Shown here: piece by piece, positions 3,735 to 24,765 of the stretch
Layout: every line of letters begins with the position of its first letter
Numbering within the stretch: the stretch's first letter is position 1
IMG/VR virus record: IMGVR_UViG_3300033146_002318
Span: 1 to 24,765 of that record
Length of the DNA: 24,765 nucleotides
Strand: one strand, 5' to 3'
From: a virus
The notes under the pieces: model-generated
What the model saw: the letters and a program-made list of their open reading frames with translations, nothing else
What the model was told of the DNA's origin: nothing
The model's database searches: none
Translations under genes and position numbers: made by a program

Positions 3735-4292
3735 TTAATAACTTTCAATTGTATATGTAGTTCCTGCTGTTCTGAATTTATTTATATAAAAAATAAGTTT
3801 TTCCATAAATAAAGAATCATTATAATTGTTTAAATCAACCTGTACAATAAAATCAACTTCATCTATATCTAAATATGCGTCTGTACTTAACCAAATTGAA
3901 GTACTTACTGTTGGAGTAATATCATCATTAGCATACCATAATACAGATGGGTCATAATTGTATGTTGTTCCCTCATAATCAAACGTATCTAATAATGTTC
4001 TTAATGCTTCAACATCTGTTGCAATAAAATGTTTAGGTAAGTTAGGAGTATCTATAATCAATATTCGTTTACCTGTTACATTTAATTTTATATTAAGAAA
4101 ATGCTCCAATGAAGCTACTTGACCAGTATGTTGTACATCAAATAAATCTATTTCGTGTCTATCTAATGATTGTTTATATTGTATATCTATATCAGCAATC
4201 AATAATTTAATCCATTCATTTAAAACAACCTGAGTTTGTTTAAATATAGTTGGTAAATAATCTATTGCAAATTTATTAAAATCCCATTTCAT
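3735..4292 (-). CDS. tail protein I-like (baseplate wedge, Mu gp48/P2 gpI position)
   Basis: A 185-aa protein with an amphipathic helical N-terminus (FNKFAIDYLPTIFKQTQVVLNEWIKLLIADID) followed by alpha/beta sequence, and a C-terminal FMEKLIFYINKFRTAGTTYTIES segment of the kind seen at the end of P2 gpI/Mu gp48-like proteins ('l..~i~~~kpagt.y.v'). It sits directly after the gpJ-like gene and before the fibre genes, which is exactly where gpI lies in P2/Mu-type tails. There it connects the baseplate wedge to the fibres. Family assignment is by length, context and the C-terminal pattern; overall similarity is too low to be certain. Confidence 0.6.
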   Translation of the reverse strand: MKWDFNKFAIDYLPTIFKQTQVVLNEWIKLLIADIDIQYKQSLDRHEIDLFDVQHTGQVASLEHFLNIKLNVTGKRILIIDTPNLPKHFIATDVEALRTLLDTFDYEGTTYNYDPSVLWYANDDITPTVSTSIWLSTDAYLDIDEVDFIVQVDLNNYNDSLFMEKLIFYINKFRTAGTTYTIESY

Positions 4293-4324
4293 ATTTTATA
4301 TTTTATTCATTTTAATAAGTGTTA

Positions 4325-5182
4325 CTATTCAATTTCATAAGTTAAAAATGTATCTAATTCAAAGTTATCATCTATTCTAATATACCCAGCTAATGAATTA
4401 TATCTATGTTGTATATTAACAAATGATGAAATTGAGTTAGGTCTTGCCTGTAATGTATCTATCTCTATATCAATTACACCATCAATATTTTGTACTTCAT
4501 CAATTAATTTATTTCTAAGTAATGCAGAGTTAAAGGGTAAATTAAGTAAGTAATTATCAATCGCTGTTGTAACATTATTTTTTAAATCATTAATATTACT
4601 TTCACCATTATATTTAATAGTTGCAATTAATTTTAATTTATCTGATTCAATGTTTTGTATTGCTATTTTAGTACCTACAAATTTTATTTTATTGATATAA
4701 GTAATAAAAGCATTTAATTCAGGTGTTGTTAAAACATCATTATCTCTTCCACGTATTTTTAATATCAATTTACCTGATACTTCTAATGCACTTGCTTGTG
4801 CAACAATTTGTTTTGCTGCATCAATAAGTGAATATTTAGGCACAAAATCAGTTGATGAATCAACTGTTATGTTATCTGGATATTGAAATTTAGTAGCTTG
4901 TAATGAGTACCAATTAAATGTACCAACCAGAGCTGCATTTTTTATCGTTTCAATTTCATTAACTTGTGTCTGTATTATATTTTCTAATACCCATTGTGAA
5001 TACGCTACAATATATAATTCCATAACCCAAATTGATACACTTGAATCTGATTGTAATTTATCAAGTAAATCCTGTACATTAGCTATTGTTGTATTTAATC
5101 CAGTTAATTCAGGTATTGTATCTTTATATGTTAATAAATTTGTAAATATTGTATCAAGTGTTCTCGTTGTAAAATTTGCCAT
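4325..5182 (-). CDS. baseplate protein J-like (gpJ/gp47 family)
   Basis: A 285-aa protein. Residues about 1-100 are mostly helical (NFTTRTLDTIFTNLLTYKDT, WVMELYIVAYSQWVLENIIQTQVNEIETI). From about 135 onward it has the alternating pattern of baseplate J proteins: GKLILKIRGRDNDVLTTPELNAFITYINKIKFVGTKIAI, then KLIATIKYNG, then the LLRNKLIDEVQNIDGVIDIEIDTLQ segment characteristic of the gpJ C-terminal core. It lies between the gp25-like and gpI-like genes (order W-J-I), the conserved baseplate wedge operon of P2/Mu-like myophages. It probably forms the wedge that triggers sheath contraction. Confidence 0.72.
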   Translation of the reverse strand: MANFTTRTLDTIFTNLLTYKDTIPELTGLNTTIANVQDLLDKLQSDSSVSIWVMELYIVAYSQWVLENIIQTQVNEIETIKNAALVGTFNWYSLQATKFQYPDNITVDSSTDFVPKYSLIDAAKQIVAQASALEVSGKLILKIRGRDNDVLTTPELNAFITYINKIKFVGTKIAIQNIESDKLKLIATIKYNGESNINDLKNNVTTAIDNYLLNLPFNSALLRNKLIDEVQNIDGVIDIEIDTLQARPNSISSFVNIQHRYNSLAGYIRIDDNFELDTFLTYEIE

Positions 5183-17545: not shown

Positions 17546-19570
17546 TTATTGTTTTAATGTAGCTACATCAACTACTATTTTTTGTAATTCTTTTGCTATT
17601 TGATTACCTACTTCATTTGTAGATTCAGTTATATTTGTTGTACTTAACTCATTAACACCAATTAACTTTGATATGTTTATAGTTAAACTTTTTATTACTC
17701 TTCGTCTTGATAAATAATCTACTGATGATTTATCACTTTTGACTGCGTTTCCGCGTCCTAAACGTGTTTCCTCAGTTGCAATCTTTTTATTCATTATTCT
17801 ACGATTTAAATCAGAAGTTGACCAGTATTTATTTGGTTCATCACCTACAATTTTTCGATAATCTTTTCGTGCTTTTATTAATTCATTTTGTTTTCTATTT
17901 TTTTCAGTAATAATATCTATTTCCTTATTAAGTTCATTAATATCCCATAACAAACCCGGGTTTTTCCCTGTCAATTTAGTATATACAGCACTTTGTTTTT
18001 CAAATGCAATTGTTGTTGGATTACTAACACCTGCGTTTAACCAGGATGATGTTATTGTTTCGGTTCTTCTGATTTCTTTTTCTAATGATTTTATAATTAA
18101 ATCATATCGTACTGCATCGTCAGACCAGTTTTCACTTTTGCGTTTTAACTCTTTATAATAATCAAGTTTACCTTGATTTGACTCAGGTATGTTTGTATCA
18201 GATGACGAGTTCATTGCAAGTCCCCAAATTGAACCATACTTTGTAGCATTATAAAACGCTTTACCAAACAGACTTAAATTATCATACGCTAACTCACCTG
18301 CTTCACCTGTTAATAAAAGTGATGTAAAACCCTGTACGACTGTACGCATACTTTTACTTATTACACTATTACCCTCCCATATAGAATTAACAAAAGCATC
18401 ATAAGCTGAAGTTGCTTTATCTATATCACCAGCTAAGTTATCTTTCATTATATCTGATAACTCTTTTGTAACACCAATGACATTTTCATAATTTTCTGTT
18501 AAATATTCAATTGTATCTGCACTTGCTGATAAAATACTTAATGCAGTTTGTGCTGTTCTACCAACCTCATCATTCGCATCAGCGAGTGTTAATCCATCTC
18601 GTGCCATATCTTCGTATGCAGCGTGAATAGTTTTCCCTGTTTCTTTAGCATTTGTTGCAGCATCAACTATTATACGTCTCAACCCTGTACCAGCACGAGT
18701 ACCCTTTACACCAGCGTTTGCAAGTACTGATAACATTGCAGTTATTTCTTCAATTGAAAACCCAGCTTGTTTTGCTATTGGTGCAATATAAGACATTGCA
18801 TTTGTATATTTATCTATATCCAATGCAGATGATACAAAAGACGAACCCATAACATCAACGACTCTTTGCATTTCAGTTGAATCCATTCCAAAACCTCGTA
18901 AAGTTTCTGCTGCAACACTTGATGCAGCTTCTAATGAAATGCCTGTTGCTTCTGCTAATGTAACAATACTTTGTGTTGAATTTAAAACTTCCTTTGCAGA
19001 AAAACCGAATTTTAATAATACTTTTTCTAATCCAGCCACTTCTTTTACAGTAAAAATGGACATTCGTCCAACATTTAATGCATTTTTCGCAAGTGATTGA
19101 GTTAATTCTTCATTGCCTTTTAATAATGCACGTATATGTGAAATACTTTTTTCATATTCTATGCCACGTTTTACAAAATCTGCAGTTACACGTGAAGAAA
19201 CATAAGCTATTGCTGCTGGTCCCATTGAACTTGCTAACATTCCCATACCGCCACCCATTGCAGCACCTATTCCACTACCAATGCCTGCACCATTACCCTT
19301 ACTACTACGCAAACTTTGTTTACTTGCTTGATTACGTTTATATATCAACGTTATTTCTTTTTTTAGCTCTGTTTGTCGTTTTCGAGAACCAGTAATATAC
19401 AATTTATTTAATTTAATTAATTGCTTTTCTGTTTTATTTATTGCACGAGTATATTTAATCTGGTCTTTAGTCATTTTACCCAATTCGTTGTGAGTAATTC
19501 TACTAACTTTTTTTACTTCTTTTGACGATTCGTCAATAATTCTCAAACGGAAATCTATATTATCTGACAT
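17546..19570 (-). CDS. tail tape measure protein
   Basis: A 674-aa protein. Residues about 30-80 are basic and helical. Residues about 92-125 are Gly/Ala-rich and hydrophobic (GAGIGSGIGAAMGGGMGMLA). Then follows the conserved tape measure core (TIGR01760-type): YEKSISHIRALL, KEVAGLEKVLLKFGFSAKEVL, TLAEATGISLEAASSVAAETLRGFGM, and MLSVLANAGVKGTRAGTGLRRI (residues about 130-300). The rest is helical. It sets tail length and is ejected with DNA; 674 aa suggests a rather short tail (about 0.1 um, by the usual 0.15 nm per residue rule). The chaperone gene and its frameshift extension lie directly upstream. Confidence 0.88.
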   Translation of the reverse strand: MSDNIDFRLRIIDESSKEVKKVSRITHNELGKMTKDQIKYTRAINKTEKQLIKLNKLYITGSRKRQTELKKEITLIYKRNQASKQSLRSSKGNGAGIGSGIGAAMGGGMGMLASSMGPAAIAYVSSRVTADFVKRGIEYEKSISHIRALLKGNEELTQSLAKNALNVGRMSIFTVKEVAGLEKVLLKFGFSAKEVLNSTQSIVTLAEATGISLEAASSVAAETLRGFGMDSTEMQRVVDVMGSSFVSSALDIDKYTNAMSYIAPIAKQAGFSIEEITAMLSVLANAGVKGTRAGTGLRRIIVDAATNAKETGKTIHAAYEDMARDGLTLADANDEVGRTAQTALSILSASADTIEYLTENYENVIGVTKELSDIMKDNLAGDIDKATSAYDAFVNSIWEGNSVISKSMRTVVQGFTSLLLTGEAGELAYDNLSLFGKAFYNATKYGSIWGLAMNSSSDTNIPESNQGKLDYYKELKRKSENWSDDAVRYDLIIKSLEKEIRRTETITSSWLNAGVSNPTTIAFEKQSAVYTKLTGKNPGLLWDINELNKEIDIITEKNRKQNELIKARKDYRKIVGDEPNKYWSTSDLNRRIMNKKIATEETRLGRGNAVKSDKSSVDYLSRRRVIKSLTINISKLIGVNELSTTNITESTNEVGNQIAKELQKIVVDVATLKQ

Positions 19571-23634: not shown

Positions 23635-23696
23635 TTTAAGCTACTTTTATATATAAGTTGTGTTTTGATATAACTTTGTTATTAAAGTAGCTTAAA
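23635..23696. repeat. structured element copy 1 (13-bp terminal stem, conserved loop)
   Basis: Arms TTTAAGCTACTTT (23635-23647) and AAAGTAGCTTAAA (23684-23696) pair perfectly over 13 bp around a 36-nt loop. The segment 23659-23696 is shared with copy 2 (24519-24556) with two differences. One, A23689 against T24549, is exactly compensated in the opposite arm (T23642 against A24503). The other, G23678 against A24538, keeps a pair in an inner alternative hairpin (AACTTTR-TTAT-TAAAGT). It lies between the convergent spike gene and tRNA-Thr, and no T run follows, so it is not a standard terminator. It begins GTTGTG at 23657, like Bacteroidota type II CRISPR repeats. Function unknown. Confidence 0.75.
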
Positions 23697-23703
23697 ATAG
23701 ATG

Positions 23704-23776
23704 AGCCTTATATTGGATTCGAACCAATTATCTCGTACTTACAAAATACGTGCATAACCAATTATGCTTATAAGGC
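23704..23776 (-). tRNA. trnT-UGU: tRNA-Thr(UGU)
   Basis: A 73-nt cloverleaf on the minus strand: acceptor GCCTTAT/ATAAGGC (7 bp), D arm GCAT/ATGC with GG in the loop, anticodon stem CGTAT/GTACG, loop TTTGTAA with anticodon TGT (23743-23741), five-nt variable loop AGATA, T arm ATTGG/CCAAT with loop TTCGAAT, discriminator T. CCA is not encoded. Position 8 is A instead of the almost universal U, and position 21 is T, so its fold is slightly unusual. It starts 9 nt after the nuclease-like gene and probably shares its transcript. It would read the ACA codons favoured by this AT-rich phage. Confidence 0.88.
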
Positions 23777-23785
23777 TTGTTTTGT

Positions 23786-24247
23786 TTAGTTTAAATATAT
23801 AGTTTTTAAAATATGCTTATTTTCTATCATATAAATTTCTTTTTGTATGTAATTGTTACAATATGCAGTTGAATCTGGTAAGCTCATTAATCTTTTTTGT
23901 AATAAATTACTCTGTATATCTAAATAAACTTGCTTCAAATCAAATATATGTATTATCTTATCAGTAAATGACATTATATAAATAACCTGAATTTCTTTGT
24001 CTATATATTCTTTGTATTTTAATGATTTTTTCAATAAACTCTCTAACTTATTCTTTTCTAATATATATGTATCATATCTGGTGCTATTATCATTCCTGGT
24101 TTTTATTTCTCCAACTATAAAATTTCTATTAGTCTCAAATACAAAATCATTAATGGAAAACTTATTGTAATTAGATGTTATTATTGAATCTGGAAATAAA
24201 GTTTGTATTATTTTATCGCCTCGCTGCTCATAGTCTTTAAAAGTCAT
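23786..24247 (-). CDS. putative PD-(D/E)XK nuclease
   Basis: A 153-aa protein. N-terminal helix DYEQRGDKIIQTLFPDS, then NKFSINDFVFETNRNFIVGEIKTRN, which fits the PD-(D/E)XK core: Asp34 at the first strand, then Glu47-Ile-Lys49 at the second, followed by a conserved-looking helix (ILEKNKLESLLKKSLKYKEY) and a further beta strand (KEIQVIYIMSFTDKIIHIFDL). These are the order and spacing of small restriction-endonuclease-fold nucleases. The substrate is unknown: it may act in phage DNA processing, recombination or host DNA degradation. It is separated from the tail genes and precedes a tRNA, so it may belong to an early or accessory unit. Confidence 0.55.
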   Translation of the reverse strand: MTFKDYEQRGDKIIQTLFPDSIITSNYNKFSINDFVFETNRNFIVGEIKTRNDNSTRYDTYILEKNKLESLLKKSLKYKEYIDKEIQVIYIMSFTDKIIHIFDLKQVYLDIQSNLLQKRLMSLPDSTAYCNNYIQKEIYMIENKHILKTIYLN

Positions 24248-24289
24248 AATTTTATTATCGTTTTTAACGTAAATTATAACTCTATACTT

Positions 24290-24298
24290 ATAAATAGA
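24290..24298 (-). promoter_or_regulatory. CTATTTATA promoter-like motif
   Basis: The minus strand reads CTATTTATA 43-51 nt before the nuclease-like ATG. A second copy lies at 24369-24377. The two are within a longer direct repeat, ATAACTSTATxCTTATAAATAG on the plus strand (24277-24298 and 24358-24377). It could drive the nuclease/tRNA unit leftward or a short rightward transcript. Confidence 0.35.
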
Positions 24299-24368
24299 TA
24301 CTTTTTATTTTTTAGTTAATGATATAAATCATCAAATTTAATCATTTAAAATATTTTATAACTGTATT

Positions 24369-24463
24369 TATAAATAGCAAATATGTTTTTTGCATTTTTC
24401 ATTAATTTGGAATTTATTATTTTTTTTTGAGAGGATACAATTTAGTTTGTATCCTCTTTTTTT
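24369..24463 (+). ncRNA. candidate short plus-strand transcript ending in strong terminator
   Basis: A TATAAATAG motif (24369-24377) is followed by a small GCAAA/TTTGC hairpin and, 50 nt on, an 11-bp terminator. No annotated plus-strand gene lies between, so a short RNA is the simplest reason for the terminator. A 15-codon frame (24383-24430, MFFAFFINLEFIIFF) ends exactly at the terminator stem; it is strongly hydrophobic but may be chance in AT-rich DNA. Confidence 0.35.
24430..24463 (+). terminator. strong intrinsic terminator (plus strand)
   Basis: Perfect 11-bp stem AGAGGATACAA / TTGTATCCTCT with a 6-nt loop and a run of T after it on the plus strand. On the minus strand the stem is followed by A, so termination is one-directional. 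It would also stop read-through from the spike gene or protect the region with copy 2 of the structured element. Confidence 0.85.
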
Positions 24464-24497
24464 ATTCTTAAATTTTAAAACGTATTTTAAACAGTTG

Positions 24498-24556
24498 TAA
24501 GCAACTTTAATTGTTAAATGTGTTTTGATATAACTTTATTATTAAAGTTGCTTAAA
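24498..24556. repeat. structured element copy 2 (14-bp terminal stem, conserved loop)
   Basis: Arms TAAGCAACTTTAAT (24498-24511) and ATTAAAGTTGCTTA (24541-24554) pair over 14 bp around a 29-nt loop. The segment 24519-24556 matches copy 1 at 36 of 38 positions. A competing inner hairpin AACTTTA-TTAT-TAAAGTT (24532-24549) uses the same 3' arm, so two mutually exclusive folds exist. The unit ends AAACAGC (24554-24560), like the 3' end of Bacteroidota type II CRISPR repeats. It sits 7 nt from the stop codon of the minus-strand gene at the right edge, so both copies lie at the 3' side of minus-strand genes. Confidence 0.75.
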
Positions 24557-24560
24557 CAGC

Positions 24561-24765
24561 TTAATTTGTATCACTACGCTGAATGTAAAAGTATTTTATA
24601 TTATCAATGGTTACTAAACAATATTCTAAATCATATTCTGATAAATTCTTTTTTAATTGTTTTAAATCAAGTTCTGACGTTATTATAAAATGCTTTCGCT
24701 TATCTATTATTTTATATGTTATTGACATATTCAACTCTAACTGGGATTCTATTATTTCTATTATT
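24561..24765 (-). CDS. hypothetical protein (partial; upstream end outside window)
   Basis: An open frame from the right edge to a TAA at 24561-24563. The last 55 residues start at a possible ATG (24728): MSITYKIIDKRKHFIITSEL, then a basic helix DLKQLKKNLSEY, then DLEYCLVTIDNIKYFYIQRS and DTN. The frame is also open upstream (IIEIIESQLELN), so the true start may lie outside. A short alpha/beta protein with no recognised family. Its stop lies 7 nt before the structured element copy 2. Confidence 0.55.
   Translation of the reverse strand, partial: IIEIIESQLELNMSITYKIIDKRKHFIITSELDLKQLKKNLSEYDLEYCLVTIDNIKYFYIQRSDTN

What the first reader, a model, noticed from the sequence alone, without database searches (positions are those of the whole stretch)
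23635..24556. Two copies of a covarying RNA-like element around a tRNA/nuclease unit
Copies at 23635-23696 and 24498-24556 share 36 of 38 bases in their 3' part, while the 5' arms differ in flanking sequence but keep perfect 13- and 14-bp stems. The change A/T at 23689/24549 is matched by T/A at 23642/24503, a true compensatory pair. The only other change in the shared part (G to A) keeps pairing in a competing inner hairpin (G-U to A-U). So both an outer long stem and an inner short stem seem under selection, suggesting a switching RNA, a protein-binding hairpin or a mobile palindromic unit. No T run follows, so it is not an ordinary terminator. It does not match a riboswitch or RNA class that I know.
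Basis: seen in the sequence. Interest (0 to 1): 0.75.

Follow-up and report, generated by a model that had tools for sequence, protein, structure and literature searches.

The report
Widespread phage intergenic hairpin element
The two look-alike hairpins in this phage fragment belong to a previously uncatalogued family of about 58-base mirror-symmetric DNA/RNA elements that many unrelated phages carry in the gap just after a gene ends, probably marking or processing the ends of gene units.

Summary
E1 (23635-23696) and E2 (24498-24556) are real, far above chance, share 36 of 38 bases in the right half, and show one true compensatory pair. They are not a private duplication. Arms of the same kind at almost the same spacing occur in over 50 non-redundant copies in unrelated phage contigs, including the isolates Aeromonas phage 65 and Tenacibaculum phage pT24. 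Consensus: TTYTAAGMSACTTT, a centre of about 36 nt with an inner weak dyad, then the mirror arm; outer span 57-60 bp. A model built without the window still finds E1 and E2 (E about 1e-7 and 2e-6). The arms covary (0/500 shuffles reach the score), yet about 40% of copies mispair at the two variable positions and there is no G-U bias on the coding strand, so RNA hairpin versus double-stranded DNA dyad is undecided. Copies hug the upstream stop codon (28 of 36, p=0.001), have no T run, recur as gene-element-gene arrays, and were not found in 395 Bacteroidota genomes. No Rfam family matches; no tyrosine integrase was found in 40 carriers. Best reading: a transcript-boundary or processing element that also serves as a junction for gene shuffling. 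The 'competing inner hairpin switch' is not supported.

The parts
23635..23696 (.). E1: dyad/hairpin element copy 1; arms 23635-23647 and 23684-23696; between convergent units: 34 nt after the stop of the + strand gene and 6 nt past the 3' end of the - strand tRNA
   Evidence: hold-out model E=9.5e-8
24498..24556 (.). E2: dyad/hairpin element copy 2; arms 24498-24511 and 24541-24554; 4 nt after the stop codon of the - strand ORF 24764-24561
   Evidence: hold-out model E=2.2e-6
23659..23696 (+). right half of E1, 36/38 identical to 24519-24556 in E2; carries the centre GTGTTTTGATATAAC, found only in this phage
23703..23776 (-). tRNA-Thr (TGT) between the copies; no CCA encoded
   Evidence: ARAGORN; Rfam RF00005
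23786..24247 (-). ORF of 153 aa between the copies; only a sub-threshold match to Pfam PDDEXK_14 (E=0.024, 15 bits against a cut-off of 25)
24561..24764 (-). C-terminal part of an ORF cut by the contig end; E2 follows its stop codon
22035..23600 (+). last gene of the + strand unit that converges on E1

Best explanation
E1 and E2 are members of a phage-specific intergenic element: two inverted copies of a ~20-bp arm (AARGCG-TTYTAAGMSACTTT), outer span 57-60 bp, around a centre that contains a second, weaker dyad (GRTA..TAYC). Shown: family, spacing, arm consensus, covariation, place after stop codons, repeated gene-element arrays, near absence from bacterial genomes. Inferred: it works at the boundary of transcription units. 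When transcribed from either strand it folds into a long hairpin with an inner hairpin. A factor that reads the arm sequence, either a phage protein or a host double-strand RNase of the RNase III type, uses it to end, cut or protect the transcript of the upstream gene. Because the same sequence lies between many genes, it also serves as a homologous junction at which gene units are gained and exchanged, as described for PeSL modules of T4-like phages. In this window E1 would separate two convergent units and E2 would separate the cut ORF from the nuclease-like ORF/tRNA unit.
For: Family and spacing: (53 non-redundant copies; 110 of 114 raw matches span 57-60 bp) against scattered spans of 38-64 in bacterial genomes. 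Hold-out detection of E1/E2. Covariation beats all 500 shuffles and all slid controls. The central segment folds better than shuffles (mean z -0.88 over 53 copies). Variants keep a hairpin by other means: L145 with a 115-nt structured form, L249 with a bulged arm, CC2/Asswx_1 with both arms changed but complementary and the centre conserved. Position: closer to the upstream stop than to the next start in 28 of 36 copies, p=0.001; 12 nt after a stop in pT24 and 19 nt in phage 65; three copies 65-74 nt after three successive stops in L140.
Against: No excess of G-U over A-C in the coding-strand hairpin (57 against 52; 4 against 2 within clusters). The coding strand does not fold significantly better than the opposite strand (p=0.12). 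About 40% of copies are mispaired at the two variable arm positions. No T run follows, so it is not an intrinsic terminator. No expression data.
Confidence: 0.42

Rival explanations
1. Double-stranded DNA dyad: two inverted half-sites TTYTAAGMSACTTT bound by a symmetric protein (regulator, recombinase or replication/partition protein); hairpin potential is a by-product.
For: Half-site preferences hold in each arm separately: Y at -1 is independent in the two arms, position 4 is never T; fixed spacing with unconserved loop; no strand bias; lone half-sites that keep the half-site plus core.
Against: Variable arm positions still covary. The L145 copy enlarges the spacing by about 36 bp with a structured insert. 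Few divergent, promoter-like contexts: 2-3 against 6 convergent and 64 codirectional. No cognate protein family shared by the carriers near the element.
Confidence: 0.3
2. Mobile palindromic element or cassette recombination site (MITE-, REP- or attC-like) that spreads among phages and carries or flanks gene cassettes.
For: Presence in unrelated phages; gene-element arrays in L140 and in the 67.6-kb contig; halves shared between copies in E1/E2 and in G023; L086 has it where relatives have overlapping genes; weak flanking direct repeats AATAGAT and TTAAACAG.
Against: The direct repeats are weak (p about 0.05 and 0.02). No PF00589 integrase in 40 carrier contigs. In Aeromonas phages the element stays at the same place across two genera. 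The integron attC R boxes (RYYYAAC/GTTRRRY) are not matched.
Confidence: 0.2
3. A recent duplication in one phage with drift, without function.
For: E1 and E2 share their right half and loop centre; the loop core is found nowhere else.
Against: The same arms and span in more than 50 unrelated copies; hold-out model.
Confidence: 0.03

Closest known systems
PeSL modules (promoter early-stem-loop) of T4-like phages (Comeau, Arbiol, Krisch 2014, doi 10.1093/gbe/evu129; cited in PMC5931544, text not held)
   Same: Intergenic stem-loops repeated between genes, proposed to mediate modular shuffling; one carrier here is the T4-like Aeromonas phage 65
   Different: PeSLs combine an early promoter with a terminator hairpin; here no U tract, no strand-consistent promoter, a conserved arm sequence, and presence far outside T4-like phages
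RNase III processing sites of phage T7 (R0.3-R18.5)
   Same: Irregular ~50-60-nt hairpins with lower stem, internal loop and upper stem just after stop codons
   Different: In T7 the upper stem (CAAGGTCRCT..GTGGCCTT) is the conserved part; here the outer arms are; no T7 site matches the arms
Integron attC sites
   Same: 57-60-bp imperfect palindrome 3' of a gene, in arrays
   Different: R-box consensus not met; no integrase in carriers
Protelomerase targets (e.g. N15 telRL, 56 bp; from memory)
   Same: About 56-bp dyad with outer arms and a core
   Different: The centre here is not a perfect palindrome; several copies in some genomes
REP/MITE-type palindromic repeats
   Same: Short dispersed palindromes in intergenic DNA
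   Different: Mostly 1-4 copies per phage, no convincing target duplication, conserved position in Aeromonas phages

Membership tests
Any Rfam 15 RNA family | Score above the curated threshold | tested here: not met
   Only the tRNA scores in the window; sub-threshold hits are chance-like; no hit at the element in 11 carrier loci
Intrinsic (rho-independent) terminator | Stem followed by a T run | tested here: not met
   No T run after E1 or E2 on either strand; terminator scan does not list them; longest T run in the 14 nt after the element is 4 or less in all oriented copies
Integron attC | R''/R' boxes RYYYAAC and GTTRRRY | tested here: not met
   Arms read TAAGMSACTTT/AAAGTSKCTTA
Integron attC | Integron/tyrosine integrase in the element's genome | tested here: not met
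   0 of 10 and 0 of 30 carrier contigs; controls ring in 14 of 14 genomes; many contigs are incomplete
T7-type RNase III site | Conserved upper stem AAGGTCRCT/AGTGGCCTT | tested here: not met
   T7 sites read directly and scanned
T7-type RNase III site | Cleavage by RNase III in vivo or in vitro | not testable with these tools
   Needs RNA
PeSL | Early promoter joined to a terminator stem-loop | tested here: not met
   No T run; no -10-like preference for the coding strand
MITE / insertion element | Target-site duplication | tested here: inconclusive
   7-bp and 8-bp flanking repeats for E1 and E2, p about 0.05 and 0.02; flanks of the other copies looked at by eye only
The phage dyad element family described here | Arms TTYTAAGMSACTTT inverted at 57-60 bp with inner dyad | tested here: met
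   E1 and E2 found by a model built without them, E 9.5e-8 and 2.2e-6; best chance hit in 40 shuffled windows E 0.81

The most novel reading that the evidence does not exclude
A class of cis-element shared by lytic phages of several bacterial phyla, read by a dedicated and still unknown factor that recognises the TAAGMSACTTT arms, marking the ends of gene units and acting as the exchange point for gene cassettes.
Probability: 0.35. Interest if true: 0.8.

Novelty: new variant of a known kind. Interest (0 to 1): 0.62.

Why it matters
Sequence-conserved cis-elements shared by unrelated phages of different hosts are rare. This one is common, easy to scan for, and sits at gene-unit boundaries, so it could reveal a shared mechanism of transcript end formation or of modular gene exchange. 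Two culturable carriers (Aeromonas phage 65, Tenacibaculum phage pT24) make it testable at once.

Tried and rejected
Loop core GTGTTTTGATATAAC as the signature: no homologues (one search gave 50 chance matches, checked). Closest phages by terminase and by tail sheath: no copy found; the weak L004 hit (28 bits) lies inside a gene. Search by the nuclease ORF and the hub-like protein: nothing. Cas/CRISPR repeat, promoter (-10 orientation equal on both strands), tyrosine-recombinase site (no PF00589), protelomerase site, T7 RNase III site considered and not met. Bacterial genomes: pattern hits have random spans; none in 395 Bacteroidota genomes; one 53-bit hit in a 1.3-Mb gammaproteobacterial MAG left open. 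About 25 pattern hits, mostly inside long genes, were set aside as chance. BLAST of an idealised palindrome in phage records and of its letters in papers found nothing.

Full report
Observation. The window is a 24,765-base virus record, 26% G+C, with a T4-type terminase and a tail sheath whose only relatives in phage records are Bacteroidota myophages, mainly Flavobacterium. On the minus strand the order is: cut ORF, E2, nuclease-like ORF, tRNA-Thr, E1. E2 begins 4 nt after a stop codon and E1 6 nt after the tRNA; on the plus strand E1 also lies 34 nt after the stop of the last tail gene.

Finding the family. The loop core had no homologue in viral or bacterial contigs. Searching the arms alone, with any loop of 18-46 nt, gave 12 viral stretches with nearly constant span (55-60 bp). 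The same pattern in 257 billion bases of bacterial genomes gave 23 stretches with spans scattered over 40-66 bp and full hairpins of other kinds. Relaxing two arm positions gave 112 viral stretches, with 110 of 114 copies spanning 57-60 bp where 54-60 was allowed. After removal of about 25 doubtful loci, most of them hits inside long genes, and of near duplicates, 53 copies remain. Carriers include Aeromonas phage 65 (GU459069, 174560-174616) and Tenacibaculum phage pT24 (NC_049383, 182660-182719), a PhuZ-encoding 215-kb phage (its copy, L082, is mispaired at one arm position and may be chance) and a relative of gut Firmicutes phages. A sequence model built from 43 copies without the window finds E1 and E2 at E 9.5e-8 and 2.2e-6; the best hit in 40 shuffled windows has E 0.81.

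Anatomy. Each arm reads AARGCG-TTYTAAGMSACTTT from outside in. TAAG and ACTTT were fixed by the search; T at -2 (91%), Y at -1 (91%), M at 4 (never T) and S at 5 were not. The centre has its own dyad, often GRTA..TAYC, and folds better than shuffles (mean z -0.88). Lone half-sites that keep the half-site and the core without the second arm also exist, as do copies with larger or bulged hairpins.

RNA or DNA. For RNA or cruciform pairing: covariation beats all 500 shuffles and all slid controls; in Aeromonas phages CC2 and Asswx_1 both arms differ from those of phage 65 yet stay complementary while the centre CCTATAAYTTTGTATRGG is kept. For a DNA dyad: each arm keeps its own letter preferences whether or not it pairs, about 40% of copies mispair at the variable positions, and G-U pairs are not favoured over A-C on the coding strand (57 against 52). 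I treat this as open.

Position. Codirectional gaps 64, convergent 6, divergent 2-3. The element is nearer to the upstream stop than to the downstream start in 28 of 36 copies (p=0.001); the gap after the stop is 22 nt or less in 20 of 45 copies. Successive genes can each be followed by a copy (L140; four copies in a 67.6-kb contig). In three related contigs it lies between the same pair of genes, 13-20 nt after the first (the major-tail-protein name is inferred from gene order). In L086 it sits in a gap where two annotated relatives have overlapping genes.

Function. Shown: a conserved, phage-associated, dyad-symmetric element at gene-unit boundaries. Inferred: a transcript-boundary or processing hairpin read by a sequence-specific factor, with gene shuffling as a consequence. 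Main rivals are a double-stranded DNA operator and a mobile or recombination element; for the latter no integrase was found in 40 carriers and target duplications are weak.

Known systems. No Rfam family, not an intrinsic terminator, not attC, not a T7 RNase III site. PeSLs of T4-like phages are the nearest concept; the paper on them is not held, so that comparison rests on its title as cited in PMC5931544 and on memory. The genome review that lists phage 65 (PMC2993671) does not mention such an element in a term search.

Limits. Arms were selected by sequence, which inflates their apparent invariance. Most carriers are fragments with unknown hosts, and gene calls around the copies are mechanical ORFs. 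The 'phage-specific' claim rests on one pattern scan of bacterial genomes and 395 Bacteroidota genomes.

Noticed in passing
L079 (IMGVR_UViG_3300012983_000004) 1607-1735 and 4117-4373: A 101.7-kb phage contig carries a Hatchet ribozyme and a group I intron with an HNH ORF; the dyad element lies 65 nt upstream of the intron.
   Followed up: no
window 24429-24468 (+): A canonical intrinsic terminator (GAGGATACAA..TTGTATCCTCTTTTTTT) on the + strand, 30 nt left of E2, although the adjoining genes are on the - strand: a + strand transcript antisense to the nuclease ORF may end there.
   Followed up: no
L083/L087/L088 (67.6-kb contig), e.g. 17805-17880, 18625, 20735, 22505, 23110 of the contig: A second repeated intergenic unit (AAATCCCTAAATTAAGG..CCCTATGGGAAATTTTATATAATAAATATATAC) between small genes of the same phage.
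   Followed up: no
Aeromonas phage 65, about 174476-174543: A separate 68-bp intergenic repeat beside the element; the surrounding region matches up to eight places per genome in related Aeromonas phages.
   Followed up: no
L145 496-610: A 115-nt form of the element in which the loop holds two extra perfect hairpins while arms and core are kept.
   Followed up: partly
window 23703-23776 (-): Phage tRNA-Thr(TGT) without encoded CCA, next to a small nuclease-like ORF.
   Followed up: no
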